The position numbers were made by a program, and so were the translations under genes. Below are positions 1,272 to 60,350 of a DNA stretch of 64,000 nucleotides, in pieces. Origin of the DNA: Taxawa tesnikishii (nom. ined.). Lineage: Eukaryota; Ascomycota; Dothideomycetes; Dothideales. A model generated the notes under the pieces. The model searched no databases. It had not been told where the DNA came from and saw only the letters and a list, made by a program, of their open reading frames with translations. Location: contig JAPDRO010000014.1 of assembly GCA_030247885.1 (NCBI GenBank), positions 620,001 to 684,000 on the forward strand, in the 5' to 3' direction. How positions within the stretch are numbered: position 1 is the stretch's first letter; every line of letters starts with the position of its first letter.

Positions 1272-1664
1272 TTACGCCTTCTTCGCACCAGTAGCGCTCT
1301 CAACATTCTCCTGCGCACTCTTCGTCGTGCTCTGAACCCCCTGTCCAACATCCCCCAGTGTCTTCCCGACCCCTCCCGCCACATTCCCCACCACTCCGCC
1401 CAGCTGTGTCGCGTTCTCGTTAGCCAACAAATGCTCTTACTACTCACTCACTCACTCACTCGACGCAACTGGGCGTTTGGGAAAAGGGGAAAGAAGAAGA
1501 AGAAGAACCAGAAGAAGAAGAAGAAGAAGAAGAAGAAGAAGAAGAAGAAGAAAAATAACACATACCGTTCCGACCGTTCCTCCGACGAGGCTTCCGGCGG
1601 TTCCCGTGACGCCGCTGGCGACGTTGCCGGCGCCTGAGGCGAGGGAGCCGAAGAGGCCTTTTGT

Positions 1665-1695
<31 letters not shown>

Positions 1696-1714
1696 TGCTA
1701 TTGTTGTCGGACAT
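1272..1714 (-). CDS. Small glycine-rich (LEA/stress-like) fungal protein, two exons
   Basis: Predicted protein of about 93 residues. The N-terminus (MSDNNSNQE) leads into a glutamine run coded by CAG repeats, then a glycine/alanine/valine-rich repeat region (GLFGSLASGAGNVASG and LGGVVGNVAGGVGKTLG), ending in ATGAKKA. Exon 1 is 1566-1714 and exon 2 is 1272-1403. The intron has a GTATGT donor, a GGCTAAC branch point and a CACAG acceptor, and contains a long AAG/CTT microsatellite. The ATG frame and the glycine-rich frame differ by one base, reconciled by one extra base in the A run at 1659-1662 (T run on plus), after which total coding length is a multiple of three. Small fungal proteins of this composition are often called LEA-like or CsbD-like; the role here is unknown. 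I am confident of exon 2 and the glycine-rich frame, less so of the start. Confidence 0.6.
1442..1553. repeat. (CTCA)n and (AAG)n microsatellites inside an intron
   Basis: A CTCA tetranucleotide run at about 1442-1460 is followed by an interrupted AAG trinucleotide run at about 1491-1553. Both fall inside the intron of the minus-strand glycine-rich gene, where the AAG run reads as a long CTT polypyrimidine tract just after the donor. Confidence 0.9.
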
Positions 1715-2245
1715 TGTAGAGGCGAGTCTTTTTTCTTTTCTTTCTTTTTGGTACAAGTGAGTTCTGTGAGATTGTTTTTCTCTCCGACTCTTTCTTTCTC
1801 GGTTTTTCTTTGGTTTGTAGGTTTGGGGTGTCTGGTCGGAAGAGAACGAAACTACGGATGTCCCTCTTCTTATGTACCGTACCCTGCAAGAGAAACGTGA
1901 GAATGATCGGTTCGATGCGACAGGGCCGGGATGGGACGCGGCATGCGCTCGCAAGGGTTGCAGAATGACGTTTTGTTTAGCGCTCGATTGTCTCATTGTG
2001 GAGGGGGAGGATTTGCGGGACGTACTGCGGGGATCTCTCGTCTTCGCCTTCCGATTGAAACGGAGGGGTCCCACGGGGTGCAAGAGAGACAACATTGTGG
2101 GAAAAAGAGAGACAAGTGTCACATGGCTAATGCATTGAAGGGTGCACAAAAGTGTTTCTCGAAGAGAAATCGGTTGGGTATTCATTTCATAAACAATCTT
2201 TTTCTAAGCTACAAGAAGACGTGACAACGTGCCATCTACGCGCGT
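1715..2245. other. Intergenic: 5' flank of the glycine-rich gene, 3' flank of the reductase gene
   Basis: The interval next to 1714 is strongly CT-rich on plus (AG-rich on minus), as expected of a 5' leader or core promoter for the minus-strand gene. No protein-like reading frame is seen, and the remainder shows no recognisable signal. Confidence 0.5.
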
Positions 2246-3323
2246 CTAAGCGAAGATGGGGAGGTTGATACCGTAGTTGGTCGGGTTGTTGAACCTCAGG
2301 CCCTGGTCGAGGGAGCTGATGCTCTTGATCTCATCCTGGCTGAGGTCGAAGCTGCAGACGTCGAGGTTCTGCGCCAGACGGTTCTGGTTGTTGGACTTGG
2401 GGATGACAGCCACGCCGCGCTGGGTGGCCCACCTCAGGAGCACCTGAGCGGGGGTCTTGCCGTGCTTGTCGGCGATGCTCTTGACAGTCTGATGGTCGAA
2501 GAGAAGGGGGTATCCTTGGCGGACTGCATGTCGAGCTCGACAAAGGATTGAGGGCCGAAGGAGGAGTAGGCGGTGACGGAGATGCCGCGCTCTTGGGCGA
2601 GCTTGATGAGCGGCTCCTGGGTGAGGTAAGGGTGGTGCTCGATCTGGAGGGTAGCTGGGTGGATCTTGGCGTAGCGGAAGAGGTCAAGGATAAGGGCGCC
2701 GTTGTAGTTGGAGATACCGATGCTCTTTGCAAGGCCGTCGTCGACCAGCTCCTCCATCGCCTTCCAGGTGTCCTTCAGTGGTGCGTTGCTCTCGGTGACC
2801 TTGTCGTTCTCGTCGGTCCAGCCTGGTGGGTAGCGGACAGAAGGGTCGACATACTTGAGCGCAATGGGGAAGTGGACAATGAACAGGTCGAAGTAGTCAA
2901 GGCCCCAGTCGGCCAGCTGCTTGCGGCAGATGGGCTCGACGCGGTCACCGTCGTGGAAGCTGTTCCAGAGCTTGGACACAATGAAGAGCTCTTCACGCTT
3001 CACAATTCCTTCCTGAATGGCACGGGCAACACCCTTGCCAGCCTCGACCTCGTTGCCGTAGTCTGGACGTTCAGTCAGTAGGGTTTACTTGCAGAAAACT
3101 GCGTGCTTTCCACTTACCGCAAGCACCATCAAAGAGCCTGTAGCCAGACTTGATGGCATTGTAAACGGTGTCGGCGCAAGTCTCTTTGTTGACCTTCCAG
3201 AGGCCAAAGCCCACGAGAGGCATCTGCGCGATGAATTGTCAGCGGGCATGGTTTGAGAAGACGAATGGAGATTTGAAGACTTACCTGGTGGCCAGAGCTA
3301 AGCTTGACGGTAGGAGCGACCAT
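2246..3323 (-). CDS. xyl1: NAD(P)H-dependent D-xylose reductase (aldo-keto reductase)
   Basis: Aldo-keto reductase that reduces D-xylose to xylitol, the first step of fungal pentose catabolism; cytosolic. Exons are 3285-3323, 3118-3223 and 2246-3062. The protein is 320 residues, the usual length for the family. The catalytic tetrad is visible: Asp45 in RLFDGAC, Tyr50 in DYGNE, Lys79 in IVSKLW and His112 in FIVHFPI. The cofactor-binding motif [10 protein letters not shown] lies near the C-terminus, which ends NLPIFA as in fungal xylose reductases. The start fits because exon 1 codes [13 protein letters not shown] directly before the conserved MPLVGFGLW. The frame is one base short at the C run 2506-2510 (G run on plus); with that base the coding length closes exactly. 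Close paralogues (glycerol or arabinose reductases) are possible, but GACDYGNE and the C-terminus favour xylose reductase. Confidence 0.9.
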
Positions 3324-3497
3324 GTCTGCGTATGATCTGATGAATAGAGGTTTGTAAACTTGTTTCAGTGGAGCAAAGGACGGTCTAAGCCTGGTGGATT
3401 GCAGGGATTGCTTGCTGGAGAAGAGTGCAGCAGATCTAGATTGGAGATAAATAGTAGAGTCAGTTCCAATGGAGTCGGGAGGGAAAGGGCAGGCAGG

Positions 3498-3504
3498 TTA
3501 TATA
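3498..3504 (-). promoter_or_regulatory. TATA-like element upstream of the xylose reductase gene
   Basis: TATATAA on the minus strand, about 175 nt upstream of the ATG at 3323. Its position and match suit a core promoter element; a transcription start has not been seen. Confidence 0.4.
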
Positions 3505-3523
3505 GCTAGCTCCACCACCGGTG

Positions 3524-6038: not shown

Positions 6039-7535
6039 TTAGCCCCAGACAGAAGCCTGAACGCCAAGGGTATTCTTGGAGGAGCCCCAGACACCGCTGT
6101 TTGAGCCCCAGCCACCGAGGCTGACGCCGCTCTTGTCGGCGATAGGGGGTTAGAAGCGGACGAAGTGGAGCGCTGCTCGTTGTTCTTCTGCTCACTGGCG
6201 GAGAAGCCGTAGCTGAGTGGGGATGGGAGAGGGGTGGTAGAGCGCTTGTTCAGGCCCTGAACGGCGGAGGGAGCTTGTCCTTGGATGGGACGAGTACCGA
6301 TGGGAGCGACACCTGCAGATGTAGTGGGTGGCTTGTTGCCCTGAGAGAGAGGTGGCGATCCACCTGGGGATGAGTTGGAGGTACGGCTCGATTGCTGAGC
6401 GGTGTCCATCAGGCTACCGAAGGTCGTAGGGTTGGACGAGGGAGACGAGGTGCTGTTGGCACGTTCAGAGGCGGAAATGCCAGCGTGGTCGCGGGGCGGC
6501 ATTTGGACGGCAGACTCAGCGCCACCCTGAGCTTGAGTTCCGAACGGATCGAAGGCCAGAGGCGAGGGACCACGTCCACCAGCGCCGGAGATGGAGGCTC
6601 TTACATCCTGAGATTGGCGCGAGTTGGCGCTATCGGGGCTATACAGGCTGGACTCATTTCCATACAAGGCACGGTGTTGGCGAGCGATTAGGTCGCGGCG
6701 TTCTTCTTCACTCATACCAGCGTTGGGACTCATGGAGCGGTCTGGCTTGACGCCAGAGGTGTCTGCGAAGCGAAAATAACATGTCAATGACTCTCTAAGC
6801 TAGGGATTGTTCTGGGAGACCCTTACTCCGGTTGTACTGTTGCTCCTGATGATAGTTGCGGAGCTCCCGCTCGCGTTGTGCTGCCATCCGACGCTTTGCC
6901 TGCATCATCTGTTCCGCCTCGCTCTGACGTGGCTGAAAGCGCTGGGCAGCGTAGAAGCCTTGGACGTTGGAGGCAGAGCCCGGACGAGGACCGTCGAACT
7001 CGCTAACGGAATGGTGTCTCGCAGGGCCTCCCATGCGCGCCTCTGCCGTTCATGAGCGCGATCTCCTTGCAACCACTTGCTGTCTTGACATACCAAAGTC
7101 GCCGATTGAGCGTCCTCCCATGACCGGCATCGAGTCACGACGACCTGGGCCTGGAATGCCGGCCATCCATTTCCCGCTCTTTACGAGGTTGTCCGTTGCG
7201 CGTTCGATCTCTGTATACATGTCAGATCCCATTTCCGTACGCTGGAAATGTCTAAAAGAGGCTTGAAGCGCTCGAAAAATGTCGCCTTGAAACCACTTTC
7301 GCCTCGCCCAGCTCTTTCTTCTCATTCTTCACGCACCTTCAAATTGAGAGGCGAACGCGTTGGACTCGCCCTGAGAAACTGTTGAGGTCGCGCCTGTTCT
7401 ATCCATCAGTGTCTCGTTCGTCTGTCCACTTGAGTTTGAAGACCGACCGGATCGGGAAGGTGGTGCCTGCTGCTCCCAGGATGGCTGACGGCCAGGTGCA
7501 CTCCAGGCGCTGTCGTTGCCGTAGTAGGAGGACAT
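6039..7535 (-). CDS. Conserved uncharacterised fungal protein (C-terminus GVQASVWG)
   Basis: Predicted protein of about 418 residues in four exons: 7337-7535, 7094-7210, 6827-7042 and 6039-6762. I recall a family spread through filamentous ascomycetes with the same landmarks but know no function for it. Landmarks are the N-terminus MSSYYGN with WSAPGRQPSWE, the block ERATDNLVKSGK, RRDSMPVMGGR, a basic glutamine-rich stretch (AKRRMAAQRERELRNYHQEQ), RSMSPNAGMSEEERRDLIA with RQHRALYG, a long Ser/Pro-rich disordered middle, and a Trp/Gly C-terminus (GGWGSNSGVWG, then NTLGVQASVWG). The C-terminal frame is reached only if one base is added to the C run at 6145-6149 (G run on plus); the coding length then closes exactly. 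Without it the frame reads through into unlikely sequence to 5531. The charged Q/R stretch and low complexity would suit an RNA-associated protein, but that is only inference. Confidence 0.8.
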
Positions 7536-16046: not shown

Positions 16047-18293
16047 CTACTGCTCGCCCAACCTAGCTTTCAGCCCCGCCACCTCCTTCGTCAGCGCCTC
16101 AATCTGCGCGCCCTGCTGCGTAATCAAATTCTTGATATCATCCAACACGCCCTTGATGCCCGCCGCTGCGCCTTCGCGCCTCCCGTCGCCCCCGTACTTC
16201 CTGCGCTCGAGTCTCCATTGACAGTCTTCTGCAGTTCCGAGAGGGGCACACTGGTCGCGCTTGTTTGCTCAGTGAGCGTCGCTCCCGAGAACGAATGGCT
16301 TTCCGGTCGCGGGCTCGGCGCGGAGCTAGTCTTGGTGGGCTCGGGCTGCGCTTGGGGTGGCGTGCGCACGCCCGTCTTCTCCTCCTGCCGCGAAGCCACG
16401 GCAGCAGCGGGCCGCTCGACTGGCTTGGGCACTTCTTCGAAGGAGCTGGTTTCGTCGTCTGAAGATTCTTCTTCGTCCTTGTCGGCGAATCTGTCCGCCA
16501 TTGCCGCCATGCTCTGCTTGTTGTCGTTCATTGTTGGTTGCGGGCCGCGCACGTTGCTTGGCGTGGTACTTGCTGGGCTTGCAACGCGTTCGGGTGTTGG
16601 CTCGGCCTTTGCTGGGACGGCGGATGTGCTCGGTGCAGGCTTGGGTGCGGGGGTATCCTTGACTTGTGCAGGCTTGGGGAGCTGCGATGCTGGAACCTCT
16701 ACGGGCTCTTCACCCTCGTAAAGGCTCTCGAGGGAGATCTTGGGTGGAAGAGCGGGTTCGGCGCCTCCGAACCAGTCTGAGGCGCTCATGGATGGCTTGC
16801 TGCCAGTGGCGGGCGGATAGATGTCGCTTTGGAACACTTCGGCACGGCGGGGTACGATGAATGAGATGGGCTCGACGTATGAGTCGTTGACCGTCTTGTA
16901 CATGCGCGTGACCTCGTTCTCGTGAGTGTTGATTCCACGTTTGGGGATGAAGGCAACTCCACGCTGCGGTTCGGCGGATTTGTATTCGGAGAGATACTCG
17001 AACTTGTCGTTCTCGTACTCGTAGTAGCGGACGTTACCGTCACTGTGTAGTGTTAGTGCAGCTGTGCTTCGATATGGTCAGTCACAGACTCACCCCTTTC
17101 CGGCAAGGTACAGCATCTGCGTGCCATCGTCCCAGAACGGCATGCAAACACCGCTGATGGAGTCCAAAATCTGGAATCCGCCTATTGGCTCCTTTGGGTT
17201 CCTTGCGTCCCACAGACCCAATTGACGGTCGCTCATGCGGGAAAAGCCAGTCGTGGCTACTCTGTCATGCTCTCCCATCCAGACTGCTCTGCTGTTCTTC
17301 GCCCCAGCATGTCCCGGTACTTCATGGGTTGGCTTCTCTTGTCTGACGTCCCAAAAACGAAGCTTCTTGTCGCGGCACGTGGTGACGAGCTGGCTGCCGT
17401 CGGCAGACCAAGAGAGGGACTGCACAATATCAGGATGCTTCAGGTTCAGGTGGGCCTTTTCAGCAGAAACGTCCCAAAGCTTGATCAGGTAGTCTCCGGA
17501 AGAACTGGCAAGAACGTTTTCAGCCGAAGGATTGAAGAGGACATGTCCAACTTTCCTAGCAATAATCAGCATGCATCGCCTGAAATCCGTCTTTGTTGAA
17601 TGGTTGCGCACCGTGAGTGGCCCGTGAGCTTGCTGATCGGCTTAACATCCGCGGGCTCTTCTGCGTCGGTGTGGAGCGTGAAGTTTTCCGGAACCCTCCA
17701 TATGAAGACCTGCATGACCCTTCAGCCATCCTCCTCAGTGCGCCATGTGTGTCTTCCATCATACCTTGCTGTCATCCGAACCAGAGGCGATCAGGGAATC
17801 GTCAAAAGGGCTCCTGGGAGACTGTCAACCACCAACCGTGTCCTCCGAGCATCAACAAGGCGCACCAATCCGTATCCAGCACAGCAGCGGTGTGTCCTCT
17901 GAAGAGAGGCATGACATCCGGCAGCTTTCCACGCTCATCGTGAGGAATGACAGCAAATGCGCCTCCACCGCTAGCTTCCCAGTTGACAGAGATATAATGT
18001 GGATTCGCCTATACCGGGTATAAGCTCGTCTTCTCCAGCAAGACCAGGAGAGTGCGCACCTTGACAATGTTCGAGTCCCAAGCGTTCTTGCTTATGCGAA
18101 GGTTGTCGTAGCATTGTTCCTTGTAGAGATGAGTTTTGCTCCTGCAGCGGCGTGAGGTACAGTCCGAGATACCTTCTTGGTGGACCTGCCAAAGACATGG
18201 CCTGGAAGAACAATGGTCAGTAATGGTATGCGCGCATGATGACAACTTTCAACGCGTACGGTACTTGGAAGCGCGTACAAAGCGCCCGGACAT
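16047..18293 (-). CDS. crn1: Coronin, actin-binding WD40 protein
   Basis: Coronin binds F-actin and regulates Arp2/3 at cortical actin patches and endocytic sites. Eight exons: 18260-18293, 18173-18201, 18060-18119, 17866-18008, 17765-17813, 17612-17709, 17094-17555 and 16047-17042, giving 623 residues. The N-terminus MSGRFVRASKYRHVFG is the classic coronin signature. WD repeats follow (FRGHTAAVLDTDW, SDDSKVFIWRV, GDYLIKLWDVS, DKKLRFWDVR, RQLGLWDARN), then IPKRGINTHENEVTR and SFIVPRRAEVFQSDIYPPA. A Ser/Glu-rich linker precedes a C-terminal trimerising coiled coil (GIKGVLDDIKNLITQQG, then IEALTKEVAGLKARL). All splice phases close. One base is missing at the G run on minus (C run 16189-16193 on plus) just before the coiled coil; with it the frame reaches the coiled coil and the stop at 16047. 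Confidence 0.93.
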
Positions 18294-27679: not shown

Positions 27680-30600
27680 ATGATACAAAGACCCTCAGCG
27701 GGCAATCAAAGACCCCCTCACCCCCAGCGTATTCCCAGCGGAGGTTCTCATCGCGCCCTCAACCGGCCAGCTCTGCCCTCGAAGCTCAGCAATGTCAACT
27801 TGGCCTCTCAGAACGACCTCGTGGACCTCACGGATGATGACGGGGAGCGTACCGGCCCAGAAGGCCAGCATCCGCAGCTGCAGCAGAAACAACTTGTCAA
27901 GTCTGAGATTATAGATCTGGATGGAGATGAGCCAGGCGCCGCTGAGCGTAACTTCCAGGATGGCCCCACAAAAGAGCTGGACAATGCGGCGGACGGATCA
28001 CTCGAAGAGGATCAGCTGCCATTCCCACAACAACCAAGATATATAACAGCGCCAGGAAGACAAAGAAGCCGCAATGCCACGCTGTTGTCCCGCGGACGGA
28101 GGGATCCTGCTCGGAGGGCATATGGATTGGAGCCGCCTGCGATCGCGAACAAGATTACTCCCCGCAAGATAGCAGACTTTTTCCCCTGGACTGGTATACA
28201 CCCGGAAGATGTTCTTAACGAGCAGGTGATAAAATCAGGCTACTGCGACAAACCACCCGGACCTACCCAGAGCGAGTCCAATTTCGCGAGACCTACATTA
28301 TGGCCTGTTCTGAAGAACAAACAAGGACTCCAGGTGCTCTCCGCTCTTTTCGTGCAGGTTTTGGACAAGAGACAGAACTCTGGCCGTTGTACTGCGCCGT
28401 CCACTTTCAGACCGCCTCCAAGAGTTGCCTTAACGGATACGAAGAGGGAAGCATGGCTGCGAGACCTTGCTAAATCAGACGTCCCCCTAAGGAGGCTCAG
28501 CAGAACAATTCCGCACGGTGTCAAGGGCAAAGTGCTGTTGGACCAATGCATCGACAAGAACATCCCTATTCCTAGGGCCATCTGGCTTGCAAAATGTGTA
28601 GGGGCGAATGAGATCCGTGGATTCAAGCGGAAAGGTGTAAGCGATTCTGTCGCACTCACCGGCGAACTGAAATGGGTCAGAGAGTGGACGGTGTCTGTGG
28701 AGCAGTTTTTGACAGTATCGTGGCCAGCTGCGGGCAACCGAACTGGCAGACCAGGATAAACTATGCTATCCGGCTTGCCACCAACTTCTTCTCGGAACAA
28801 TTGCTGGACACCGAACACTACATGGACTGGCTTCTCACGTCTCTTGAGTCCACGTCTCCGGAGAGATTGCCGATTTGGCTTGTATTGGTTCAAATATACT
28901 GGAAGCACCTGGTGTCCCAAAGGAAGCGGGGCCGCCGCTTGGCCGAAATTTTGCTCTCCCATCTACATACTCTGACTACATCAGCCTTTCAGCATACAAC
29001 CATCCAGATCATCCTACGCATTCAGCAACTCGTGACGGTCCTGGCCGTCTCCCACCGGGGCTGTCTCATCCTTCCCAGGACTTGGGACAAGCACAAGCAT
29101 GTGTTAGCAGCTATCGACAACCGCGGTAGACGTGGTCTTTCAGAGGCGTTGAATAGCCTCGAACGCCGCAATAGGCGCCTTGCCGGATCAATCTCTCTCA
29201 AGGCGCTCTATTCCGAGGCACAAAGTTAAGATTCATTGACCTTCTCGATTCTGTCGGCGTAGACGTCCACATCGAGAACATTGCAGCTCAGGCTCAGTCT
29301 CTAGTTCAGGACCCTCAAGTTCTCGTCGATACTCTCCTAGAATGGGCCTCTTCGAAGTATCGCAACGGGCATGCACGGATCTATTTGGCAGCACGGTTGT
29401 TGAGACACTGGAAGTCGGTTGGTATGGATGTCGATGAGGCTATCTTGCACACTCTCGCCAGGACTACTGGCAGACATGACATAGATCGTCGCAGCCTGCA
29501 CCGTGTGATAGCAGAGCTTGTGCGGTCCAAACACTTCTCCGTTGGCCGTTACCTACAATGGCTAATCTCGATGGGTGCCTTCTCCGGGACTCATGTATGT
29601 GTACAAAGTCACGAATCGAGGCAGACCAAGCTAACACGCATGCAGAATACTGGAGACGATGCACATCTCATACTAAACATCCCAACAGCAGGTCTCACCC
29701 CAAATGTGGCGAATTTACGTGCCACCCTACTGCAAAGACTGGGTTTCAGCCTTGACTTCGAAAAGCAGCAGATCACGAGTGCGAAGGAAGCGCTCTCGTC
29801 CTTGTTGTCAGATAACGACGCTCCCGCGACTCGAAATCTGGAGGCAGCTACCGCTCAGTTCTCACAGCTTACTGGTGCAGTCAAGCTTGCTGTAGGCCAG
29901 TGGCTGTGCGAAGAGGTTTGCCGTCTCGCCTCGTATGACATCAACCTGACAGGCAACGGCGATGTTTGCTTCGCTCTACCTGAGCCGCTCTTCTGCAGGA
30001 CCAGAAGCGTCCTCGAGCAACTCGAGGATCATGCATCCTTGTCGGTCCTGCTCAGTAAGGCAACAACGTCCACTGATGCCTCCGTGCTGACTTCGATCGT
30101 CGACACTGTCAACATGCACGCTCAAACCTTAGCAGCGATAGGCGCTCTGCCGGAACTGACCAGTCATCTCTGCAAACGTCAACGCTTGCTCCGAGTGCAG
30201 CAACCTTTGGACAAAGTATTCCTGGGTGCACTCTCCAGTCTGATGCAGCGCGTTCCGACTGATCCGGCCTTGGTACGAGCACTGAACAGTGATGTGGCCC
30301 TGTGTGAACAGCAAATATCGGCGGCAGCATGTTCTCCCGCGTCTGACAGCATGATCGCTCAACAACCCGGTACTCTCGAAGCCGATGAAGACATCAGTAG
30401 AGTCCTTTCGAGCGGCAACAGCATGGATGATCATCTTATGCAACGCATGTTCAGCGTCATCACACAACGCGCTGCTAAGGCTGGCTCGAATAATGTTGGT
30501 AACACAGCTCGCTGGTACAGTCAGTTAAGGACGTTTGATCAGTCCGCTTTCGATCAATTGGCGCAAGATCTCATGAGGAAGTTGGCTACTGGGGGAGCAG

Positions 30601-40790: not shown

Positions 40791-43641
40791 CTATACAACA
40801 TCCCCAGACATCTCCGCAAGCGCCGTCCTCATCCTCTGCGCACTCATGCGCTCAAACCGATCTACGCTCATGACAAACGTACCCCTTCCCGCCGTCAGAC
40901 TGCGTAAATGCTTAAGATAGCCGACCATCTCCTTCAGTGGCACTCTGGCGACGATCTGACGCATCTGGTTACCCGTCGCCGCCATCACATCCCCATCCTC
41001 GCCACTTCCAAACGGGTCTGCCGGCGCGTAGATCTTCTTGGGGTCGATTGTGGCTTCGTCTCTGGTATTGGGCAGCGATTCATCGAACGCACCTTCCCCG
41101 AGTGAGATGATCTGCCCACCACGCGCGGCGCTGAGATCATGGACTACGCTGCCCAGACTGTCTTCGTCAACGCTGATTGTGACGAGCATGACGGGTTCCA
41201 TGAGCACGGTGCCGGTGCTCGACGTCTTCGAGTCCTGCAGAGCTTGAGTCACGGCCAGGCGCGCAGCTGAAGACAGTGAGGCGGCGGTAGTGGTTGGGAA
41301 AAGGTGGTTGAGAGGGTCGAATGTCACCGTAACGTGGGTAGAGTGCATCGGGTAGCCGTGTGCCGGACCGCGGGCAAGAGCAGCGGAGACACCCGTCTGT
41401 AGGGCCGTGCGGACAGTCTGGATGGGGAGAGTGGGAGTAAGTGATGGGGTATCGGGTTCTTTAGCGGATCCATCTTCGTTCAAAGTCGGCGTGGAAATGG
41501 TCAGGTAGTTGTTATCAACAAGTTCGACGCCCGCCTCCTCTTGAGAGAAGTCGTGGTCATCGCGCGGTTGCACCACAGCCTCGCAGGCGGCTTTGCTCGC
41601 CTTTCCGGCTACTTCGCGGTCAAAGATGCCCGTTTTCTGTGTGGATGGTGACGTGATGGCTTCTCGGAATCCGATTTGGATGTTTCCAATTCGAGCTTTC
41701 GCTTTCAGGTCGTTGACCAGGCGGTCGCGTGCGATTTCGAGGTGCAGCTCGCCCATTCCTGCCAAGTGCGTCTGCCCGCTTTCGTGATCCTGAGTGACGT
41801 TCAAACTTGGATCTTCACGGAGCAGCAGCTCAAGCGTCTCTGTAATATGCTTCTCCTCAGCAAGGCTGTTAGGTTCAACGCTCGTAAAGAACACTGGAGG
41901 CGGTACAGCGATGGGCCTGAGTTGGAGGCTGTTGAGGGGCGCTGGAGGTCCGGTTTTTGGATTCGCGCCCGTGTACGATATCAGAGTATCGCCAGTGCGA
42001 GCGTACTTCAAGCCAGATATGACTCCAATCTGTCCAGCGGGTATGAACGGGACTTCCACAGCGTCGTTGGCGTACATTTTCATCAACCGGGGCGCTCTTT
42101 CCGTGACCTGCAGGTTGGTGTTGAACAGTAGCGCGTTTCTCGCTATCATTCCAGAATAAACCCGTACGTAGACGAGGACGCCCCTACGTGGGTCGCTGAC
42201 GACTTTGAATGCGAGAGCACATCCCTCTAGGTTCTTGACCATGTGCGTCGCTTTCCCTGTAGCGAGAGCCTTGCTTTGCTTTTGGCCGGATTGATTCATC
42301 GTTGGCTGCGCGAGCGCTACTTTGCCCGACAATAGCTCGTTAAGGCCAGAATGTGTCGCACCAAGGCTCACTTCGGGATCTGGCCGCTCGTCTGGAGACG
42401 GCAAGAGATCCACGACAGCATCAAGCAGAGGCTGTACACCAACATTGCGGAAGCTTGCGCCAGCAAATACAGGGACAACCACTTGCGGGGTAGCCAATGT
42501 GCATCTCCTAAGACTCTCTGTAATAGCCGAAGGCGGTATCGCAAGATGATCTTCCTCGTACTCAAGGAACTTCTCAACCATTTCATCGTCATGCTCACTT
42601 AACAGCTCCACCAGAGCGATTCTGGCTTTCTTGAGATCTTCTGCAAGTTTCTCTCCACGGCTGGCGAGGTCTTGAAGGTCGAAGACCTGCATGGACTTGC
42701 CGTCACTCCCTTCCTCGTAAAGCAGTGCCTTCAGGCCTAGAACATCGCCCACGCCCTGCAGCTTGCCGTCTGCACCTCTCCACCACGGAACTTGGCACAG
42801 GGCAGGCCAGCTGTTCAATCTCGTGCCGATCTCTTTGACAGTTCTGTTGAAAGCAGCTCCATCACGGTCGAGCTTGTTAACGAACAATATCCTTGGGATG
42901 CGGTAGAAGCTGGCTTGGGCCCAAACTTTTTCTGTCTGCGCTTCGACGCCTGCTACGCCGTCGAGGATACATACTGCGCCATCCAAGATCCGTAGCGAAC
43001 GCAGGACCTCAAAGGTGAAATCCGCATGCCCGGGAGTATCTATCAGGTTGACTTGATGCGCCTGCGATGAACGCGGTAGTGTTGGTGTAAGCTCTGGTGT
43101 AGCAGTTCCGTTGTCAGGTACAGGCGGCCAGGAGAATGTCACAGCTGCCGATTGGATAGTGATGCCCCTGGCCCGTTCAGCAGGAAGAAAGTCGGTGACA
43201 GTTGATCCTTCGTCCACATCTGCGCGCTGTAGTGAGCCATGTGTACCAACAACGGGTTGGATGATCCTGGCCACGAGAGGAGTGTACGAAAAGAGCGCGT
43301 GCACACGGATGGGTCACCATGAGTTGTATGTAAGAAGGACAGCGCAAGTCTTACCTCCTAATCTACGGGTAAAGCCACTGTAATACAGCATACGCTCCGT
43401 CGTTGTAGTTTTACCCTGCCTTGCTTAGCACCTACGCTGTTCTTGCATATCTCCAGCATGTACATACAGCATCAATATGGGCTATGATACCAATATTGCG
43501 TGTTTTGGCAGTGGTTGCCACTGCGGTTTGAGCAGTAGAGCTAGCATGACGATTGACGGAACGTGAGAAAGCCCTTACACGTTCTCGCACTAAGCAGGCG
43601 GCAGGACGACGCGCTCGAAGACACGTCCATCCGACTATCAT
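40791..43641 (-). CDS. MEF2: Mitochondrial elongation factor G 2 (ribosome-releasing factor 2)
   Basis: Translational GTPase that, by family knowledge, acts with mitochondrial RRF to split ribosomes after termination. Three exons: 43468-43641, 43355-43415 and 40791-43219, 887 residues, exact phase. The N-terminus ([30 protein letters not shown]) is arginine-rich and lacks acidic residues, as expected of a mitochondrial presequence. G motifs are [19 protein letters not shown] (intron 1 splits the P-loop), [31 protein letters not shown] and [11 protein letters not shown]. Later domains show [14 protein letters not shown] and the C-terminal [19 protein letters not shown]. An insert around the switch I/II region ([18 protein letters not shown]) is longer than in bacterial EF-G. 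No frame conflict is seen over 2.6 kb of coding sequence. Confidence 0.93.
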
Positions 43642-44378: not shown

Positions 44379-46008
44379 TCAATACCAGCAGCGACAGCAG
44401 CTTCCGCTGACAGGCCAGGAGAACCAACGCCATGATCCTCAGCGCTACCACGGAACTGCGGCCCGCCAGAGGCAGCATCAACCACAGTACAAGCTGCAGG
44501 CTAAGATCACGGCACTAGAGCGTACAGGACGAAAAGATCCTATCCTCCGATTTGATGTATACGTGCGTGTTCTTTCAATGTAACAATGCTCTATTACGAG
44601 TGCTGACCACATAGGTCTAGACCAACCTGCCTAAGTTTCGCACCACCCAATTCCGCGACGTTCGCAGGAGCCATTCAGAGTTCATCAAGTTCGCGGATCA
44701 TTTGATCTCATCTAACCCAGAAGCTTTTGTTCCTGCCGTTCCACCGCCGCTCACCGCTGCCGGAGCAGGAACCGACGAAGATGAAGCAAGAGTCAAGGCA
44801 TCAATGCAGCGATGGCTGAATAACGTGTGCGGGAACGAAGTTCTAATGCGCGATGAAGAGATGGTTTTTTCGTCGAGAGCGATTTTGGATACAGTCCGGT
44901 GGTCAGACGCAAGCAGCCAGCTACGGGTGTCAGGCGGAAGTACATCAAGCAGTTCGCCCCACCGCCGGACGACACGCCGGAATTGCTCGAGGCAAGACCG
45001 GTTGTCAAGTCCTTCTACCTAGGTACCATGGAGACTGGCCAGAAGGTGGATAAGGTGGTCAAATCACGACGAGGTGAGCTAGCATTTCACAATAGCTGCA
45101 TTGCAACAAATGACTGACACTCATCGCGCGTAGCACTTGGCCTTGCTGAGAACGACCTCGGCGTAAAGATGGCTGCCATGCAAGCGCAAGAAACGCATAC
45201 CGGACTTGGAAACGCTTACAGAAAGATTGGCAAGGTCATCCAAACAGTCGGTGACTTCCACGCGGCACAGGGTACAGCTGAGGCAACCACCCTGGCGGAT
45301 CCCTTGCAGTACCACTCATCGGACGCCTTCATTGTCAAAGAAACGTTGACTAACAGGCACATTCTGCTGCGAGAACTGCTGCAAGCTCAACAGTCAACTC
45401 GGTCGAAAACGAGCGCAGCGGACCGGCTGAAGGCGTCGTCGTCTGTGAAGCGGGACAAGGTCGACGAGGCCATTTCCGCGCTCGATGAAGCGCGCAGTCA
45501 CGAAGCCTACCTCAAACAGAAGACGGAGCGCGTGACCGCGAATCTGGTCCAGGAGCGCCGCAAATGGTTCGCCCGCACAGCCGCAGATCTGCGTTCCGCC
45601 ATCCGCGAGTACGCCATCCGCCAGATTGAGGTCGAGCGTCGCACTCTGGCGACGCTGGAACAGGTCCGCCCCGACGTTCGCAACATTGATGCTTCTGGTG
45701 GTCTGTCGAGACTCGGCCGCGAAGCCCATCCCGTCATCAGACGCAGTAGCTTGGCTAGCAGCCAAGGGCCGAAGGGTGATGCTTGGAGTGGCGTTCCGAG
45801 ACGACCGGACGGCTTGAACAGGAGTATCAGTGGTAGTTTTGCCGGGACGCCTGTTCCTGAGGAAGAGGACGGGGCAGAGCAAGGTGCCGCAACGGGCAGG
45901 AAGAGAGCCACCAGTGGAGCGAGTAGTTTGGGACGGTTAGAAGAGGACGACGAGGATAGGGTCGACGCAAGGAACGCGGCCAGTCGATTGGCTCAGACGA
46001 CTTTCTGA
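43978..46008 (+). CDS. VPS17: Retromer sorting nexin Vps17
   Basis: PX-BAR sorting nexin that pairs with Vps5 and helps the Vps26-29-35 trimer form endosome-to-Golgi tubules. Exons are 43978-44562, 44621-45073 and 45134-46008; about 637 residues. The disordered N-terminus carries a pure glutamine run. The PX domain starts at about 180 (YKLQAKITALERTGRKDPIL, TNLPKFRTTQFRDVRRSHSE). Further on are RVKASMQRWLNNVCGNEVLM, QFAPPPDDTPELLEARPVVK and the BAR region (NAYRKIGKVIQTVGDFHAAQ, DAFIVKETLTNRHILLRELL, ADRLKASSSVKRDKVDEAI). The frame is one base short at the T run 44865-44870; one extra T gives EMVFFVESDFGYSP and restores exact length. The ATG at 43978 (MSSSSGKSP) is preferred; an in-frame ATG at 43906 is also possible. 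Confidence 0.92.
44344..44376 (+). repeat. CAG repeat coding polyglutamine in Vps17
   Basis: About eleven CAG codons in tandem within the disordered N-terminal region. Likely length-variable between strains. Confidence 0.9.
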
Positions 46009-46691: not shown

Positions 46692-49600
46692 ATGGATCTC
46701 GCAGCATCACCCACTGCTGGCGAACCCTCACCTCCCTTAACACCACGCAGGAATTCCTTCACTGATGCAAACGCCGCGCTCGCGAGGAAGCGACCCCGAT
46801 TGAGTGCTTCTCCAGCCAAACCTCTAACCAAGGCCGCATCGCCGTCACCGAACAATTCCCCTCCACGCAGCCCCGTCATCGAGATAGTTGAGCCCGACAC
46901 CGTTCAAGAGCCACCGCCTGTTATCATCGACCTCGACGGCGACATCACCATGGACGTCGGCCGCATTCAGGATTTTCCGTTTATCAATATGTCCGACTGG
47001 ACGACGCCCGAAGCTGCGAGCAGGGGTCTTGGAGAATACCTGGACCAAGGACGTAAGGAAGACGTTCAAGCACCACTCAAACGTTGCTGATGTTATGTTC
47101 TTAGATCCGTTCAATGTCCTCAACTTGCATGCGCTCGTCGACTGGTTGGAAAACCACATAAGTTTAATGGCGGAGCGCGCCGCGGAATGGCCTCGATACT
47201 ATGAGGCGGGCAAGCTGTTTTGGGACCACCTCGGCAACGTGATAAGGAAGCTCGCCCACAGAGGGTATGTGTTTCCTAATTGTTTTCTCTTTCAGTCCAA
47301 TCCTTGTTGCTGAACACCTTGATGACAGCAATGCTAAGAACTGCAGAAGACCCAACGACTCCAACAAGTACTCGGCTCATGACCTTCAAGATCTAGTCCG
47401 TCGCCTGTACTACAACTACACCTTGTTGTGCCTCAGGTTCTTGCACATTGATGCTATGCGCATCTCAGACACAGGCCTCCGCAGGGATTCGGCTCTTGCA
47501 GGTGACTCACCAGCAATCTTGCTGTCAGCGACACCTCACGTCAAAGCTCTCGGAGACCTCCTTCAACAAAGGTGCTTGGTAAAGATGTTCTTGTTTAGCA
47601 TACAAGAAGCCGACAAACTATTGGTCGATACTGTCGAGTGGTTCGTTCAAGATGGCAGTCCGCAGAAGGACCTTTTGACCCTCTTTGAGACTGCAGTCCG
47701 CCGGTCAGAAGGAATCCAAGACAGTCTGGAGACGTCGCAGGCTTGTCTGGGTCTTTCCTCGGTGGTTCTCCGCACGCTTCCCTCTCCCCTCTTACGGCAG
47801 CAAGCCCAAGATTCGATTTACTTGGGTTCAGCCTCAGAACTGTTCCGACTGGCCAGTGAAGTACTCCTCCCGAAGCTCTGCAAATTCCAGCCAAGAAATC
47901 TACCAGAAAACTTCCACCGAGACATACTGGATGCTACGGAGAAGATTTTGGCAACTTTGATGTCGGTGAACAACCACATGATCTCTGAGATGCTCGACAA
48001 TGCAGTACAATATGTTAGCAGTCTGGTGGAAGAACGTCCCGCTGCTTCTGGTTCAGAAGGCTCAACACAAGAGTTGCCATGCCATGTTCTGAACTTGTCT
48101 TTCCGAACAGGAAGCTCGTCACCTACATTCCCCTTTGCTGTCTGGAGGGCTGGTGTATGTATTGGCTACCTCACGAGCGAGATCATATTCTTGCGCGGGA
48201 TCGGCCTCGAGAAGCTCAATATTGTATTGACAGAAACATACAGGCAATGCGAGAGAGAGCCGGACAATCTCACTCTGCAATGCGTGGCCAGAATACTTCG
48301 CTGCAAGGCCGGCGTGTCATACTTCATGGGACCCCTTACTCACCCGGATCTCATACGGAGAAGTGCGCACGTAATCAACTTTCTCCTAGTCACCCACAAT
48401 ATCTCTACTGCAGACATTGACGTCATGTGGTCCACCGTTGCGACGAATCAGCAAGCCGAGATCGTGGAAGCAGGTTATATCATGCTGGAGCAGCTTCTTC
48501 AGTACATGGATGTCGAACATCTTGTCCACTTGGCGAAGAAGATTGGCCAGTTGCCTATACAACACGCCGGAAAACATGCACTTCGTCTGCTGAATCTAGT
48601 GGAGAATGCATTTATCGACAGGGCTGTACCAGGCGAGCAGTCAGCACAGCTACGGTTCGAGATGATAATGAACTGCGTGCAGCTCCTTCGAACTGTTGGT
48701 TCCGCTAGTTTTTCCCCGGGTTGTCAAGCACTCCAGGCCGCTGCGTACGCATCCATCAAATTGCTTCTGACCCCAGAGCTACTGGAAAGAACGGTGTCTT
48801 GTTGTTTGACGGAGATGAACCGAAACTCTGCTTTAGCCGCTGGCTGTGCCTGCGTGTTGCTGCAAGTGTTGGATCGCCCAGATCTGGGAACATCATGGGC
48901 TGTAGAGGCGATATCCATTCCTTTGAAAGACCTCTGCCACTACGTCGATGAGCAGCGCACAGCCAACCCTGCGATCTGTCGGCCACAAGTTTTACTCCCT
49001 CGCATTCAGCTCGTGCTCCAATTACTGGTATATCTTCCCATGGATGATCGACAAGTCGTGGAGATGACGCTTTGGAAGTACCTTGTTTCTGAAGAGGCAA
49101 TCAATCACTCAGCTAGAAGCGCCGCATTGAACGAAATTATCGCGAACAAGGAGAGAGATACGGCAACTGGACAGCTCTACTGGCGTTGTATAACGTCATT
49201 TTTGCCAAAATTGCCAGCTGAGTACGCCACAGATGCTGTGTATGCGCTCTTACACGACTCGCTCGCGGATGACTCCACCTGGGAAGCCACCCAGTCGGAT
49301 GACAACAGTTTCTCCATACATACTGAGATACTGCGTCTGGCTTTCGGTGCTCCGGATAGCACTCTTGCCAAAGAGTTGGTCAGCCTTCTGATAGCCTCGC
49401 TGTTTGACCCGACCTTGGTGCGACACCACCGGGATATTGCACTTGCTGCGCAAGTTTCCACCGTTCGTCAATGTCTTGAGTGTCTTTTCCGTCGCGATGG
49501 TCGCTTCGTGGAAGCCGTAAATCTCCTCACTGCCCTTCTTCAACACTCGCGCGGCCTACATCGATCTCAGAACCATGAGCCACAACTGGATTTGACTCGC

Positions 49601-52600
49601 AAAGTGATCCGCATTGAGGGATCGGAGCAAGGTGATCTTGTTAGAATACCCGTTTCAGGCGTACACGACAAGCTAAAGTGGGATCTCCTCACTCCTACGA
49701 CTGCAACGCTTGAGCAACTGTCACGCACCCTTTCGAATGGAACTGGTTTCAAGGAGTTCTCGCTTTTCGGCAGTGGCCAAGCTGTTGACTTGAAGAGCGA
49801 CCCGCAAAAACCATAGCCGAGGCGGGACTCCAGCGCAAAGGCCAACTATTGATCAAAAAGGTGTACACAGTGAAGAGTATCACCGACGAATGCGACAATA
49901 AGGGAGTCTCCAACCCCGTCGAGGCGGAAATCCTGCAAGAACAGGAAAGACTCAACACCTGTCTCGATGACCCAGAGGAGATTGGCCGGACGGTATGTCG
50001 TACATAACTGACACGACTCTCTCTGAACTTATTTCGTGCAAACCAATACTGACTCGGCTTGTCTAGGCCTATAAACTTATGTTGCAGTTTCCTTTCCAGC
50101 CGTCCATAAGGCGCGCGGTAGCATCACCCAGAGCAGCCGTTGATGATGTTTTCCCTCCCGACAAACCATGGAAGGCTATGTACGCTGTAGGCGCGCTTCA
50201 GGGTCTTTTGCAAGATCAGCTCCGCTTGGGCATCGCGGACGAGGCTTTCCTAGTACACGGCGTGCACGTATTGATCGAGCTTGCGGAACGGAATAACAGC
50301 GCCGACAAGTTTCTAGCTGCGGCCATCGCTTGCGCCCTGTTTTCGTTTCTCAAAGGTACGCTTACCGTGTTAGTTTGAGACACGGTTGGCTGACGCTTGC
50401 AGTAGAACGGCCCGTTACGGATGTTTCCAGAGAGTACTTCCAAAACCCATCACGATTTGTATCGAGAATGATGGACCTGACCCGTACGGGCAAGGATTGC
50501 CTGCTGTCCACACCAGGTAGCACTCCGGTGCCCCAGCTTGACGAGTTGTTGTCCATTATGCATTGGTCCTATGACTGTCTCCTGGAAGGAATCAGGCTCC
50601 AGCCGTTGATTGGTGAGGCTCTTGCTACGGCAGATGGTGTGATTAAGGATCATAAGCATCTTTTGCTGAGCAGTAGTCCGGCTGTCTCGGACAAGATCAC
50701 GAACTCTATTTACCGGTTGTGTGAGGACGGGAATGTGTGAGTAACCATGCGTAGCCCGCCGTCTGATAACACAAGCTGACCACGAATACGTTAGATCCTC
50801 TGTAATAAAAGCTTTCTACTGGGGTGTGGTGTCTGAGTCGCTGAAAGATGCCCTCAACGAACCGGTTCATTCAGGGCAGCTCTTCCACTTGGCTCCCGAA
50901 ATCCTTCGCTCCAATGAAAGCGTAACCTCAGACGAATCGCAGATGATGGCCTTGGTCGACCGATTCAGCGCAGCGCTCCTTGCTTTGGACCACGTGGAAA
51001 CGTTCGGCTCGGACATGATTGACGCTCGGGTCTCCGGACTTGCGATTCTCTTGAAGACTTGCGTGACTTTTCTCAAGCGGTTCAAACAGCCGTTGAACCT
51101 GACCATCCTTGCGGCAAAACTGTTTACAAAATTTCTCTTCCCAAACAGGCCTTCGAAGTCTGTGACAGACGGCAGTGCGGGACCGATCATTAGCCCTCAT
51201 TCGCGTGCAGCCATCTATGACCTGATCCTACTTCTGTGCGAGGACACACAGGTCTGTGATGACTTAGTCGCACTGCTCGATCGAGCTGTCCAGGATACAA
51301 CTTTCAGTGAACGCTTCTTCGATGGAGAGACCAGGCTGCTGCGGGCCAGCTGCGGTCGCGTTGGAATTTCCAACCTTGGCCAGACCTGTTACATGAACTC
51401 TCTTCTGCAGCAGCTGTACATGAACACCAATTTCCGGAAGTTCATACTCGCCACCCCAGTGACCGATCCAGAGAAGCAAGCAGTACTTCATGAATTTCAA
51501 GAGTGCTTTGCCACACTACAAGACAGCTATGTGCACGCGTATTTCCCGGAACGCCTTGCGCAGGTTCTTGGTGTCGACAAAGACGTCCAAGAGGATGCTC
51601 ACATTTTCTTCACCACCATGATCGGGAAACTGGAAGATAGCATGCCTAGTGACCAAGCCAAGCAGGAGCTGAAGAGATTCTTTGCCGGCAAAATAGATCG
51701 CAGACCCGTGGGGACTGCGGTCATGTGTCGGAGAGTGCTGATGAGTACTGCAACCTTTCTTTGGTCGTGAAAAACAAGACAAGCCTGAAGGAAAGTCTTG
51801 ATGAATACGTGGTCGGAGGAGCCCTTGAAGGTGGCGACAAGTTCAAGTGCTTGGCCTGCGATCCGCAAGGAAAGGCATACGTCAATGCGAAGAGACGCAC
51901 CGGACTGGACCAGATACCGGACAACTTGGTTCTGGGACTGAAACGCTTCCGCTACGAAACCTTTGACGGCGGAGAGAAGGTGAATGACCACTTCCAATTT
52001 CCTGAACAGATCGACATGGCACCTTACAAACTTCAAAACCTCAACGATCCTACCGCACCGCGCAAGTCGGATATCTTCGACCTTGTCGGCGTCGTCGTCC
52101 ACCAAGGTTACCTGGACCGCGGTCATTACTGGTCCTATGCCAAACAGAGGCCCTCGATGCCTACAGAATCTCCACTCTGGTTCAGACTTGAGGACGACAG
52201 CGCCCGGCATTCAAGCGTACAAGAAGTTCTCCAGGAGACCACTGGTGGCCTCTCTGACGACGGAAGAATCAGAGAGGATAGCGCCTACGTTCTATTCTAC
52301 CAGCGTCTTGCTGACACTTTTGAAGTAGACGATCGTCCAAACATCGAGCCATCTTCGAGAGCAGGACAATCTACCAAGGTGTTTGTACCAGAACATCTTG
52401 AGTCAAAGATCTCGCAAGACAACCAGAATCTGGTTAGACAGCAGCATTTGATGCACCCATTGCACGCTCGTTTCGTGCTCAACATTTTTGGATTGCTTGA
52501 CCGCCTGACCAAAGGACAGCCGACTGCGGACTACAAGTCGGAAATGACTGTCCTCTCAATGGCTTTGGTCCATCTCCATTGGGTCATCGTGCGTAATGAA

Positions 52601-57659: not shown

Positions 57660-57751
57660 GCTTCGATGGTGTAGTGGTATCACACTCGTCTCACATACTT
57701 CATAATGTGGGCATCCACGAGAGGCCGCGGGATCGAAGCCCGCTCGGAGTA
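57660..57751 (+). tRNA. tRNA-Val (CAC) with a 20-nt intron
   Basis: A full cloverleaf can be drawn. Acceptor stem 57660-57666 pairs with 57744-57750, and the discriminator is A57751. The D arm is around GTGTAGTGGTATCAC. Anticodon stem CTCGT (57685-57689) pairs with ACGAG (57717-57721), and the loop carries anticodon CAC at 57692-57694. The intron is about 57696-57715, one base after the anticodon as is usual, and contains GTG at 57707-57709 able to pair with the anticodon. T stem GCGGG pairs with CCCGC around loop ATCGAAG. The loop starts with A where T54 is usual, and the D loop is one base short of the common TAGTGGTTAT form, so a base miscall or a weak gene is possible. No CCA is encoded, as expected. 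Confidence 0.75.
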
Positions 57752-58457
57752 CTAGATCAGTGTCTTCTTTTGCTTGTATGGCATCCTATATCGCTCTTAG
57801 TCATGTCTAACCTGTCCTCGCTGATTTAACAGTATGAACTACGCGTCCGCGTGTTGTTGGTCTGTAGCAAGGTTTTAGTATATATGCCGCAGCAAAGTTC
57901 CGCGCCGCGAAGCGGCGTGGCACCTAGAATTTGGTTGGTTACACGGCAAATCAGAAAGAAAGTTGTCGCAATCATTTTGAGTCTATATACATCTACATAC
58001 CACTTATGGTTCCAAATTTGTTCACTGTTGAAAGGGAGCGGTTGCATCTCTGGAAGGGCGCCAAGACCTTCACAATTTGATAGTTCCGCCAACGTTCGCT
58101 TTATAGAGTGCAAGTCTGTAGGTAGCCGGCAGAACCTCGGAGTGTTGGTTGAAGGATGAATAACAGCATTTCTCCAACGTTCTGTAGTACTCGGTTCAAG
58201 TGCCGTTGCGGCGTCTCACTTCTGCTTCAAGCTCGAGGCCGTGCCCCTGGAAGGCATTCCTTGCGTTTTGTGGGAGCATGAGACCTTCTGTAGCCGGACC
58301 TGCGGACCTTTGGACGGGATTGCTATGCCACTAGATCAGGAACAGTTGCCCGAAGAGATTAGGGATCTAGGGGTTTTGACATTTTGCAACAGCGTGGCAT
58401 CCTCCGTATCCATGACTACCAGAGGATGGTTCCTCTAGAAGCTTCAAGCGCCTGAAG
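57752..58457. other. Intergenic between tRNA-Val and the HET-domain gene
   Basis: A T-rich stretch shortly after the tRNA (about 57765-57775) may serve as a Pol III terminator. The open frame at 58241-58438 has no recognised features. Confidence 0.45.
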
Positions 58458-60350
58458 ATGGCAACCACGGAGAGCCCTTACACACCGCTAGATGATCCTG
58501 AAGACATCCGATTGCTCCGTGTTCTCCCGTCCGTAAATCCTACTGCAGAGCTGGATTTTACGGTGGAACACGTATCACTGAACGACGCGAGTGTGACATA
58601 CGAGGCTATCTCGTACACATGGCAACCTTCGTACGAGGAGACCGCCGTCGCCGCAGGCAGGCAGCACTACCAGACTGTCGCGGTGAACGGGTTCGTCTTG
58701 ACGTCGAATGTCTATCTAGCATTACTACGGTTCCGTTTGTCGGACGAACCAAGGATACTATGGGCAGATGCGCTCTGTACAAACCAGGAGGATGACACGG
58801 AGAAAAGCCACCAGGTCTCCACAATGAGATACGAGCAGCGCGAGTCATCATCTGGTTGGGTTAGCCGGAGCAAAGCGCGATATACCACAAGGCGTTCAAG
58901 AAACTGGAAGAGATTTCTGCGACGTTCCTATCTCATGACGAGGCGCTTGCGCTTCCGTATGCCGGCGCTGCCGCAATAGCCGCCGTCCATCATGCTGTAC
59001 GATCCCACACGGTATCCGACCCGGATTTCTGGGCTGACTGGCTTGCCGTCGATGCGCTTTTCAGCCTGCCGTGGTTTCACCGCGTTTGGATAGTACAAGA
59101 GAGCTTGTTTGCCCGGAACAGTCCTGGAATGCCAACAATAGTGGGTCGTGGTACGAGTCACACAACGTGGGATGTCATGGCAACCTTTGCGGAGGGCTTC
59201 CTCCGTTTTCAGGTCAGCCGCATCTTGCCAACCAGCCGAACTGTTCTTTTGGGTATCGATCCAATCCGTTTGATTGGGATCATGGAGGAAGTCTTTGAAT
59301 ACCGTTCATGCGCCCAGCTTTTTTGCTGCATTGGTGCGTATGCGCTCCCGTAAGGCTACGGACCCGAGAGATAAGGTATCTGCACTTATGCATATCATTC
59401 CGGGTGAAGCTGTGTCAAATCCCTCGTTAGAAACGGATTATTCGAAGACCGTCCAGGAGGTCTACACGGCAGTAGCGCTGCATTTCCTCCTGAGACGTCA
59501 TTCTCTTAAGCTTTTGCAGTTGCCGGGATGCACACGTTCCGAACGCTCTCGCATACCTGGGCTTCCTACCTGGGTGACGGATTGGAGCATGGATATCACA
59601 GGAGGAACCCCTTTTTTTGAACGGTTTTCACGCTGGGACATCCTCAGCCGGACAATTCACCAGTCCGTTGGTTTCGATCTCCGAAAACCAGAGGACTTTG
59701 CGCGTTTTCGGAAAGATTTTGGGCGAAGTAACGGATATGTGTTCATCTAGGGAAAACTACGTCTTGAAAGAAGACCGCATTGCTACCGGAGAGCCGGAGC
59801 GGCAAGAGTTTGGTGAAGAAACGATATGGGCATCACAAATATGGTACCGGGAAGCTCTTGCGCTCGTCCAGACTCTGGAACAATATTTTCCATCTACAGG
59901 CGAGGGAACTCGTTCCTCTGCAATAGCAATGCATCCTCCCAGCACGATCGATCTCGATGATGCATTCTGGTGCACCCTTATCTGTAATAGCGACGAATCA
60001 TATAGAGCGGCGCCGACCTCGTACAGGAGGCTGCACCAAGCCTATCACGAATGGATGATCACGCCAGAGGAAAGAGCTTCACCTGAAGCTGAAGCGTTTG
60101 GCAATCTCCACTCGCGTTGGATCAACGGGAGATACTTGTGCACGACCCGGCAAGGCAGCATGGGCTGGGCGCCTTCCCGCACCAACATCGGTGATCTTTT
60201 TGCGTGCTCGAGGGCGCGGATGTGCCAATCGTGATACGCAGAAGTGGAGAAAGGTATGAGTGGATTGGGAGCGGATATCTGCACGGCTACATGTATGGGG
60301 AGGCCTATGAGAACGACAGGGTCCCTCTGAAGCAGATCGTCTTCATCTAG
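58458..60350 (+). pseudogene. HET-domain (heterokaryon incompatibility) protein, broken
   Basis: HET domains are fungal NADase/TIR-like death effectors used in non-self recognition between hyphae. The order of motifs is complete: ISYTWQPSYEETA (canonical SYTWG), ILWADALCTNQED, EKSHQVSTM, AARVIIWLG, FSLPWFHRVWIVQESLFARN, SRKATDPRDKVSALMHIIPG and a C-terminal CVLEGADVPIVIRR-like segment ending at 60348-60350. The reading frame changes near 58824, at 59319-59324 (one T too many), near 59717-59723 and at 60197-60201 (one T short). A stop replaces an expected Glu in the WLGEPE segment at 58862-58864. The frame changes resemble homopolymer miscalls seen elsewhere in the window, but the stop is a substitution, so the gene is probably genuinely dead in this strain. 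No introns are needed. Confidence 0.65.

What the first reader, a model, noticed from the sequence alone, without database searches (positions are those of the whole stretch)
1659..60201. Systematic one-base frame breaks at homopolymers across conserved genes
Well conserved genes lose frame by exactly one base at a run of identical bases. Missing base: 1659-1662 (glycine-rich gene), 2506-2510 (xylose reductase), 6145-6149 (GVQASVWG protein), 11093-11096 (F-box), 16189-16193 (coronin), 18881-18885 (fucosidase), 28706-28710 and 29216-29217 (Med12), 44865-44870 (Vps17), 49806-49810 and 51691-51694 (USP34-like), 60197-60201 (HET). Extra base: 47024-47027 (USP34-like), 59319-59324 (HET). Restoring one base gives family motifs on both sides and closes exon phase and total length exactly in nearly every gene. 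Essential single-copy genes such as Med12 are unlikely to be dead, so this looks like homopolymer miscalling, biased to undercalls. Any automatic annotation of this contig would truncate or split these genes.
Basis: partly seen in the sequence, partly recalled or inferred. Interest (0 to 1): 0.75.

Follow-up and report, generated by a model that had tools for sequence, protein, structure and literature searches.

The report
Homopolymer miscalls breaking fungal genes
Several ordinary fungal genes in this stretch change reading frame by one base at short runs of identical bases, most likely because the sequencing machine miscounted the runs, so this is a data-quality flaw and not new biology.

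Summary
Most of the frame breaks are real features of the sequence as given, but not all 14. Nine have independent support of varying strength: 2506, 6145, 16189, 28706, 29216, 44865, 49806, 51691, 60197 (the last and 29216 weakest). Two are likely but open (18881, 59319), two could not be supported (1659, 11093), and one is better explained as a normal 52-base intron (47024). The xylose reductase case (2506) is exact: two frames align to neighbouring residues of the same solved structures and overlap by one base. Seven of the nine lie at runs of 5-6 bases, where a random 31-101-base stretch holds such a run in 3-11% of cases. Observed coding runs are broken in 6 of 36 cases at length 5, 1 of 208 at length 4. 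Length dependence, one direction and several unrelated conserved genes fit homopolymer miscalling in a long-read assembly, already described for ascomycetes. No reads were available, so this is inferred. The HET gene may be different: on my reading it has further frame changes and an in-frame TAG, and could be a true pseudogene. No base was put back; the species is unknown.

The parts
2437..3084 (-). xylose reductase (aldo/keto reductase), upstream frame piece
   Evidence: Pfam Aldo_ket_red profile 51-207; PDB xylose reductases to chain residue 237-238
2249..2683 (-). xylose reductase, downstream frame piece
   Evidence: Aldo_ket_red profile 227-290; PDB xylose reductase from chain residue 235
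2506..2510 (-). frame break at a 5-base run, missing-base direction
   Evidence: frames overlap by one base at contiguous chain residues (my arithmetic); gain 27.5 nats; model interval 2497-2518
6145..6149 (-). frame break at a 5-base run (gene without Pfam match)
   Evidence: gain 15.5 nats, interval 6136-6150; best intron alternative -1.9
16189..16193 (-). frame break in coronin between the WD40_4 part and a coiled-coil-like C terminus; 5-base run
   Evidence: WD40_4 upstream; gain 13.4 nats; the model's own peak interval 16198-16230 lies just beside the run; intron alternatives 2.4 and 2.1, long
28706..28710 (+). frame break at a 5-base run in Med12
   Evidence: PF09497 upstream; yeast Med12 upstream and weakly downstream (E 0.084); gain 5.4; intron alternatives of score 3.8 exist
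29216..29217 (+). frame break in Med12, not at a homopolymer
   Evidence: ARM_SRB8 further down in the downstream frame; gain 6.6; best intron alternative -0.3
44865..44870 (+). frame break at a 6-base run at the end of the PX domain of a Vps17-like gene
   Evidence: PX profile 9-77 of 84 ends at 44863; Vps5 C-terminal match further down; gain 7.3
49806..49810 (+). frame break at a 5-base run in the USP34-like gene
   Evidence: open-frame overlap of 25 bases, best intron -0.5; gain 9.2; called in the decode
51691..51694 (+). frame break at a 4-base run inside the catalytic domain of the USP34-like gene
   Evidence: UCH profile 1-129 then 130-254 in two frames; human USP34 on both sides; gain 5.1
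47053..47104 (+). canonical intron (GTAAGG, CTGAT, TTAG; 52 bases) that explains the claimed extra base at 47024
   Evidence: splice score 4.2, median of the decode's 39 introns 4.1; sequence
18881..18885 (+). possible frame break at a 5-base run near the N terminus of an alpha-L-fucosidase-like gene
   Evidence: 76-base overlap, best intron 0.4; gain 2.2; Alpha_L_fucos further down
59319..59324 (+). HET gene: frame change, extra-base direction, 6-base run
   Evidence: 77-base overlap, introns of score 2.0 and 1.9 not excluded; gain 0.0
59612..59618 (+). HET gene: possible further frame change, extra-base direction, at T7
   Evidence: my three-frame reading; weak introns of score 0.9 and 0.8 exist, gain 0.0
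60197..60201 (+). HET gene: frame change, missing-base direction, 5-base run
   Evidence: 37-base overlap, introns -2.1 or worse; motif recalled; gain 0.0, the model does not see this gene
58826..58864 (+). HET gene: possible frame change not at a long run, then a TAG at 58862-58864 in the downstream frame
   Evidence: my reading; best intron -0.3; against it, the HET match of the upstream frame runs on to 58904
40791..43500 (-). comparison gene without a break: EF-G-like, 840 codons open
   Evidence: Pfam GTP_EFTU to EFG_C in one frame; N terminus joined by introns on my reading

Best explanation
The frame breaks in the housekeeping genes are consensus errors of the assembly. The base caller or polisher undercounted runs of about five or more identical bases by one, which shifts the reading frame in the sequence file but not in the organism. 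Shown here: frame breaks exist in the sequence, are single-base in direction and size as far as tested, and fall at runs of 5-6 far more often than chance. Inferred: that the true genome has the longer runs, and that the data are of nanopore type.
For: Nine of 14 sites supported. Seven of the nine at observed runs of 5 or more; broken fraction 0 of 1020 at length 3, 1 of 208 at length 4, 6 of 36 at length 5, 1 of 4 at length 6. All nine are of the missing-base kind. Control places gave no gain in 24 of 24. Coding sequence has no G/C run of 6 or more, against 14.0 in dinucleotide shuffles, though codon structure also lowers this; non-coding A/T runs of 6 or more show no excess (10 against 12.9). 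Unrelated conserved genes are hit. The same error class is described for nanopore ascomycete assemblies (passages of PMC7500977, and PMC9453082).
Against: 29216 is at no homopolymer (1 of 4967 runs of length 2) and 51691 is at a run of four. At 28706 introns of score 3.8, near the median, exist, and are set aside only by spacing and a recalled motif. With its penalty of 9.2 the gene model used introns, not breaks, at 28706, 29216, 44865 and 51691. The model's peak for coronin lies beside the run. No reads, transcripts or sister genome were found. PMC7500977 reports more overcalls than undercalls after polishing. The run spectrum has no fungal control.
Confidence: 0.88

Rival explanations
1. 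More of the claimed breaks are ordinary introns that the first reader missed.
For: 47024 is explained by a canonical 52-base intron. Two breaks called by the model, 34385 and 43174, dissolve into introns on my reading. 28706 has introns of score 3.8, 16189 of 2.4, 59319 of 2.0, 51691 of 1.5.
Against: At 2506 and 51691 protein matches run across the break and leave no room; at 44865 the PX match runs up to it; at 28706 the intron would leave about 11 or 34 residues where yeast has 59 and the uninterrupted reading 49 (my counts). At 49806 and 60197 the best introns score -0.5 and -2.1, against a median of 4.1.
Confidence: 0.07
2. The genes are truly decaying. This is a serious option for the HET gene only.
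For: On my reading the HET gene has up to four frame changes in about 1.7 kb, in both directions, and a TAG in the downstream frame.
Against: Two of these four changes rest on my reading and recalled motifs alone, with weak introns not excluded. For the other genes the decode needs no in-frame stop, though a called intron could hide one. Joint loss of Med12, Vps17, coronin and USP34-type genes is unlikely.
Confidence: 0.03
3. Real genomic frameshifts tolerated through programmed or slippage-type decoding at runs.
For: Slippage at homopolymers is a known process (recalled), and most breaks sit at runs.
Against: Runs of all four bases in unrelated genes without a common motif by eye; one break is at no run.
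Confidence: 0.02

Closest known systems
Homopolymer indel errors in nanopore-only assemblies of Drechmeria coniospora (PMC7500977; passages seen)
   Same: Single-base indels in homopolymers break reading frames of conserved ascomycete genes, in one example twice in one gene
   Different: There errors leaned to overcalls after polishing; the nine supported breaks here are all undercalls. The platform behind this window is unknown.
Indels in low-coverage nanopore assemblies of filamentous ascomycetes (PMC9453082; passages seen)
   Same: Indels inside and outside homopolymers remain at low coverage
   Different: Coverage and polishing of this contig are unknown.

Membership tests
Homopolymer miscall artefact | Breaks concentrate at homopolymers and rise with run length | tested here: met
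   7 of 9 supported sites at runs of 5 or more; broken fraction 1/208, 6/36, 1/4 for lengths 4, 5, 6
Homopolymer miscall artefact | One-base change with coding sequence on both sides | tested here: met
   Family or structure matches on both sides for 2506, 51691 and, weakly, 28706; model gains at eight of the nine supported sites, none at 60197
Homopolymer miscall artefact | Accurate reads show a different run length | not testable with these tools
   No reads; no own genome held
Homopolymer miscall artefact | Depletion of long runs across the contig | tested here: inconclusive
   No A/T excess in non-coding sequence, G/C runs below shuffles, but no fungal control
Pseudogene (HET gene) | Several disabling changes including nonsense | tested here: inconclusive
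   Up to four frame changes and one TAG on my reading; two changes not secured
Pseudogene (housekeeping genes) | Nonsense codons or larger indels besides the single-base breaks | tested here: inconclusive
   None needed in the decode, but pieces run from stop to stop by design and an intron call could hide a stop
Intron at the claimed 47024 site | GT..AG with donor consensus, branch-like motif, fungal length, frames joined | tested here: met
   GTAAGG, CTGAT, TTAG, 52 bases, score 4.2; a free break gains only 3.4 nats over it

The most novel reading that the evidence does not exclude
At least some of the breaks in essential genes (Med12, USP34-type) are true in the genome and are bypassed during expression by slippage at the runs.
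Probability: 0.02. Interest if true: 0.75.

Novelty: not a real feature. Interest (0 to 1): 0.1.

Why it matters
It matters for data quality only: automatic annotation of this contig would split or truncate several conserved genes and could invent gene losses or false introns. At roughly one supported break per 3.6 kb of coding sequence (9 in 32,652 bases), a broken or missing gene in this assembly should not be read as biology. It also shows that a missed intron can look like an extra base.

Tried and rejected
A first scan that allowed any number of free frame changes per 100-base window was uninformative. A forward/backward version gave approximate gains only, since its two passes differ by 5.3 nats; its gains (for example 1659 -4.9, 11093 -3.8, 60197 -6.4, 59319 negative) are replaced by the one-position test, and only its intervals are used. 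Of seven positions above 5, three lie at claimed sites (2503, 6144, 16216); the other four are 10904 (start-codon effect, my judgement), 20688 (intron edge, my judgement), 34385 and 43174 (introns on my reading). The model does not see the HET gene at all. In one search, 10 of 14 claimed sites gain, 47024 among them (3.4), and four do not (1659, 11093, 59319, 60197); positions were sampled every third base near each site.

Searches for relatives in viral and prokaryote contigs found none. PDB searches with the Vps17 downstream piece and a Med12 junction peptide gave chance matches. Programmed frameshifting, RNA editing and another genetic code were considered and dropped by judgement, without a special test. 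A literature search on Vps17 was not used.

The class 'supported' was chosen by me with run lengths already known; it keeps 29216, which is at no homopolymer. The coding mask was extended by hand for exons that the model missed (listed in that script). The T7 run at 59612 counts there as unbroken.

Full report
What the window is. It is a stretch of a filamentous ascomycete genome, judged from fungal-type families: HET, ARM_SRB8, DUF3517 and Fungal_trans_2 above their cut-offs, Fung_rhodopsin below its own. No whole genome is held for it and the species is unknown. It has 64,000 bases, 53.8% G+C and no N.

How the claim was tested. For each of the 14 sites the two open frames were listed. Twenty pieces flanking sites were searched apart against Pfam, and more of the window; the pieces of 1659 and 47024 and the short downstream pieces of 49806 and 60197 were not sent. 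For some sites pieces were also compared with solved structures. A gene model trained on the window, with both strands, introns and optional frame changes, was run. GT..AG introns of 42-259 bases that could join the two frames were listed and scored at each site. In a last test a single free frame change was allowed near each site and compared with the best reading without one; 24 random coding places served as control.

Result of that test. Gains in nats: 2506 27.5, 6145 15.5, 16189 13.4, 49806 9.2, 44865 7.3, 29216 6.6, 28706 5.4, 51691 5.1, 47024 3.4, 18881 2.2, and 0.0 for 1659, 11093, 59319 and 60197. All 24 controls gave 0.0. The model's own penalty for a break is 9.2. Of the claimed sites its decode calls breaks only at or near the first four, and it uses introns at 28706, 29216, 44865, 47024 and 51691.

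Clearest case. The two xylose reductase pieces match the same structures. The upstream piece aligns to chain residue 237-238; the downstream piece covers the same proline and goes on. By my arithmetic the two frames overlap by one base at 2506, so no intron fits.

Other supported sites. In the USP34-like gene the UCH profile is split 1-129 and 130-254 between two frames, and human USP34 aligns to both. In Med12, PF09497 lies upstream and ARM_SRB8 further down. Yeast Med12 aligns upstream (E 9.6e-16) and weakly to the middle piece (E 0.084). Candidate introns of 113 and 44 bases there score 3.8, near the median. By my count they would leave about 11 and 34 residues between the aligned parts, against 59 in yeast and 49 without an intron. 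The PX domain of the Vps17-like protein runs to 44863, just before the T6 run; the downstream piece found no relative. Sites 6145, 16189 and 49806 rest mainly on the model. For coronin the model's peak (16198-16230) lies beside the run. Site 29216 has only a poor intron (-0.3), a recalled motif, and no run longer than two bases. Site 60197 rests on a 37-base overlap without usable introns and a recalled HET motif, since the model does not see this gene.

Sites that do not hold or stay open. The claimed extra base at 47024 is better explained by an intron at 47053-47104 with donor GTAAGG, a CTGAT motif and TTAG, 52 bases long. Its score of 4.2 is that of a typical intron of the decode (median 4.1 of 39; that list includes this intron and four that I reject). 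For 1659 and 11093 nothing independent was found, and the F-box match is below its cut-off. For 18881 an intron of score 0.4, and for 59319 introns of 2.0 and 1.9, are not excluded.

Run-length dependence. Seven of the nine supported sites lie at observed runs of five or more. A random coding interval of 31, 61 or 101 bases holds such a run in 3.2, 6.7 or 11.4% of cases, giving P of 1.3e-9, 1.9e-7 and 7e-6. Of coding runs, 1 of 4967 (length 2), 0 of 1020 (length 3), 1 of 208 (length 4), 6 of 36 (length 5), 1 of 4 (length 6) and 0 of 1 (length 7) are broken. With the two open sites it is 9 of 11, and with all 14 it is 9 of 14 (all). Without 60197 the set is 8, with 6 at such runs (no P computed).

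Run-length spectrum. In non-coding sequence A/T runs of six or more number 10 against 12.9 in shuffles, and G/C runs of five or more 22 against 37.7. In coding sequence no G/C run reaches six, against 14.0. This fits undercalling but has no fungal control, and codon structure affects the coding figure.

The HET gene. Besides 59319 and 60197, my three-frame reading suggests frame changes at T7 (59612-59618) and near 58826-58850, and a TAG at 58862-58864 in the downstream frame. Against this, the HET match of the upstream frame runs to 58904, the downstream HET match is below its cut-off, and weak introns exist at both places (best -0.3 and 0.9). It may be a real pseudogene; its breaks are poor evidence for miscalling.

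Genes without a break. The EF-G-like gene is open for 840 codons and its N terminus joins by introns on my reading. The GT2 gene and the MFS gene also seem to need introns only.

Literature. Passages of PMC7500977 describe homopolymer indels that break reading frames in nanopore-only assemblies of an ascomycete, with overcalls more frequent after polishing. Passages of PMC9453082 report homopolymer indels in ascomycete nanopore assemblies at low coverage. Both came from one listing; neither was read in full.

Verdict. It is a known artefact without new biology; interest is low.

Noticed in passing
window 24664-25800 (+): A Fungal_trans_2 match (profile 22-140) followed by coding-like sequence that seems to change frame repeatedly; may be a relic of a transcription factor gene.
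   Followed up: partly
window 15310-15319: A run of ten G, the longest homopolymer in the window, outside the genes of the decode.
   Followed up: no
window 57660-57751 (+): A tRNA found by Rfam (48.4 bits) but not by ARAGORN with the bacterial setting; perhaps one with an intron.
   Followed up: no
window 1455-1637: A long GAA-type microsatellite next to the glycine-rich gene (K, R and L runs in the open frames).
   Followed up: no
window 39724-40225 (-): A small gene that looks to me like a glutathione-dependent formaldehyde-activating (GFA) protein (recalled), in two frames that a short intron could join; Pfam gave only two sub-cut-off matches, RNA_pol_N and ABC_membrane_2, for one piece.
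   Followed up: partly
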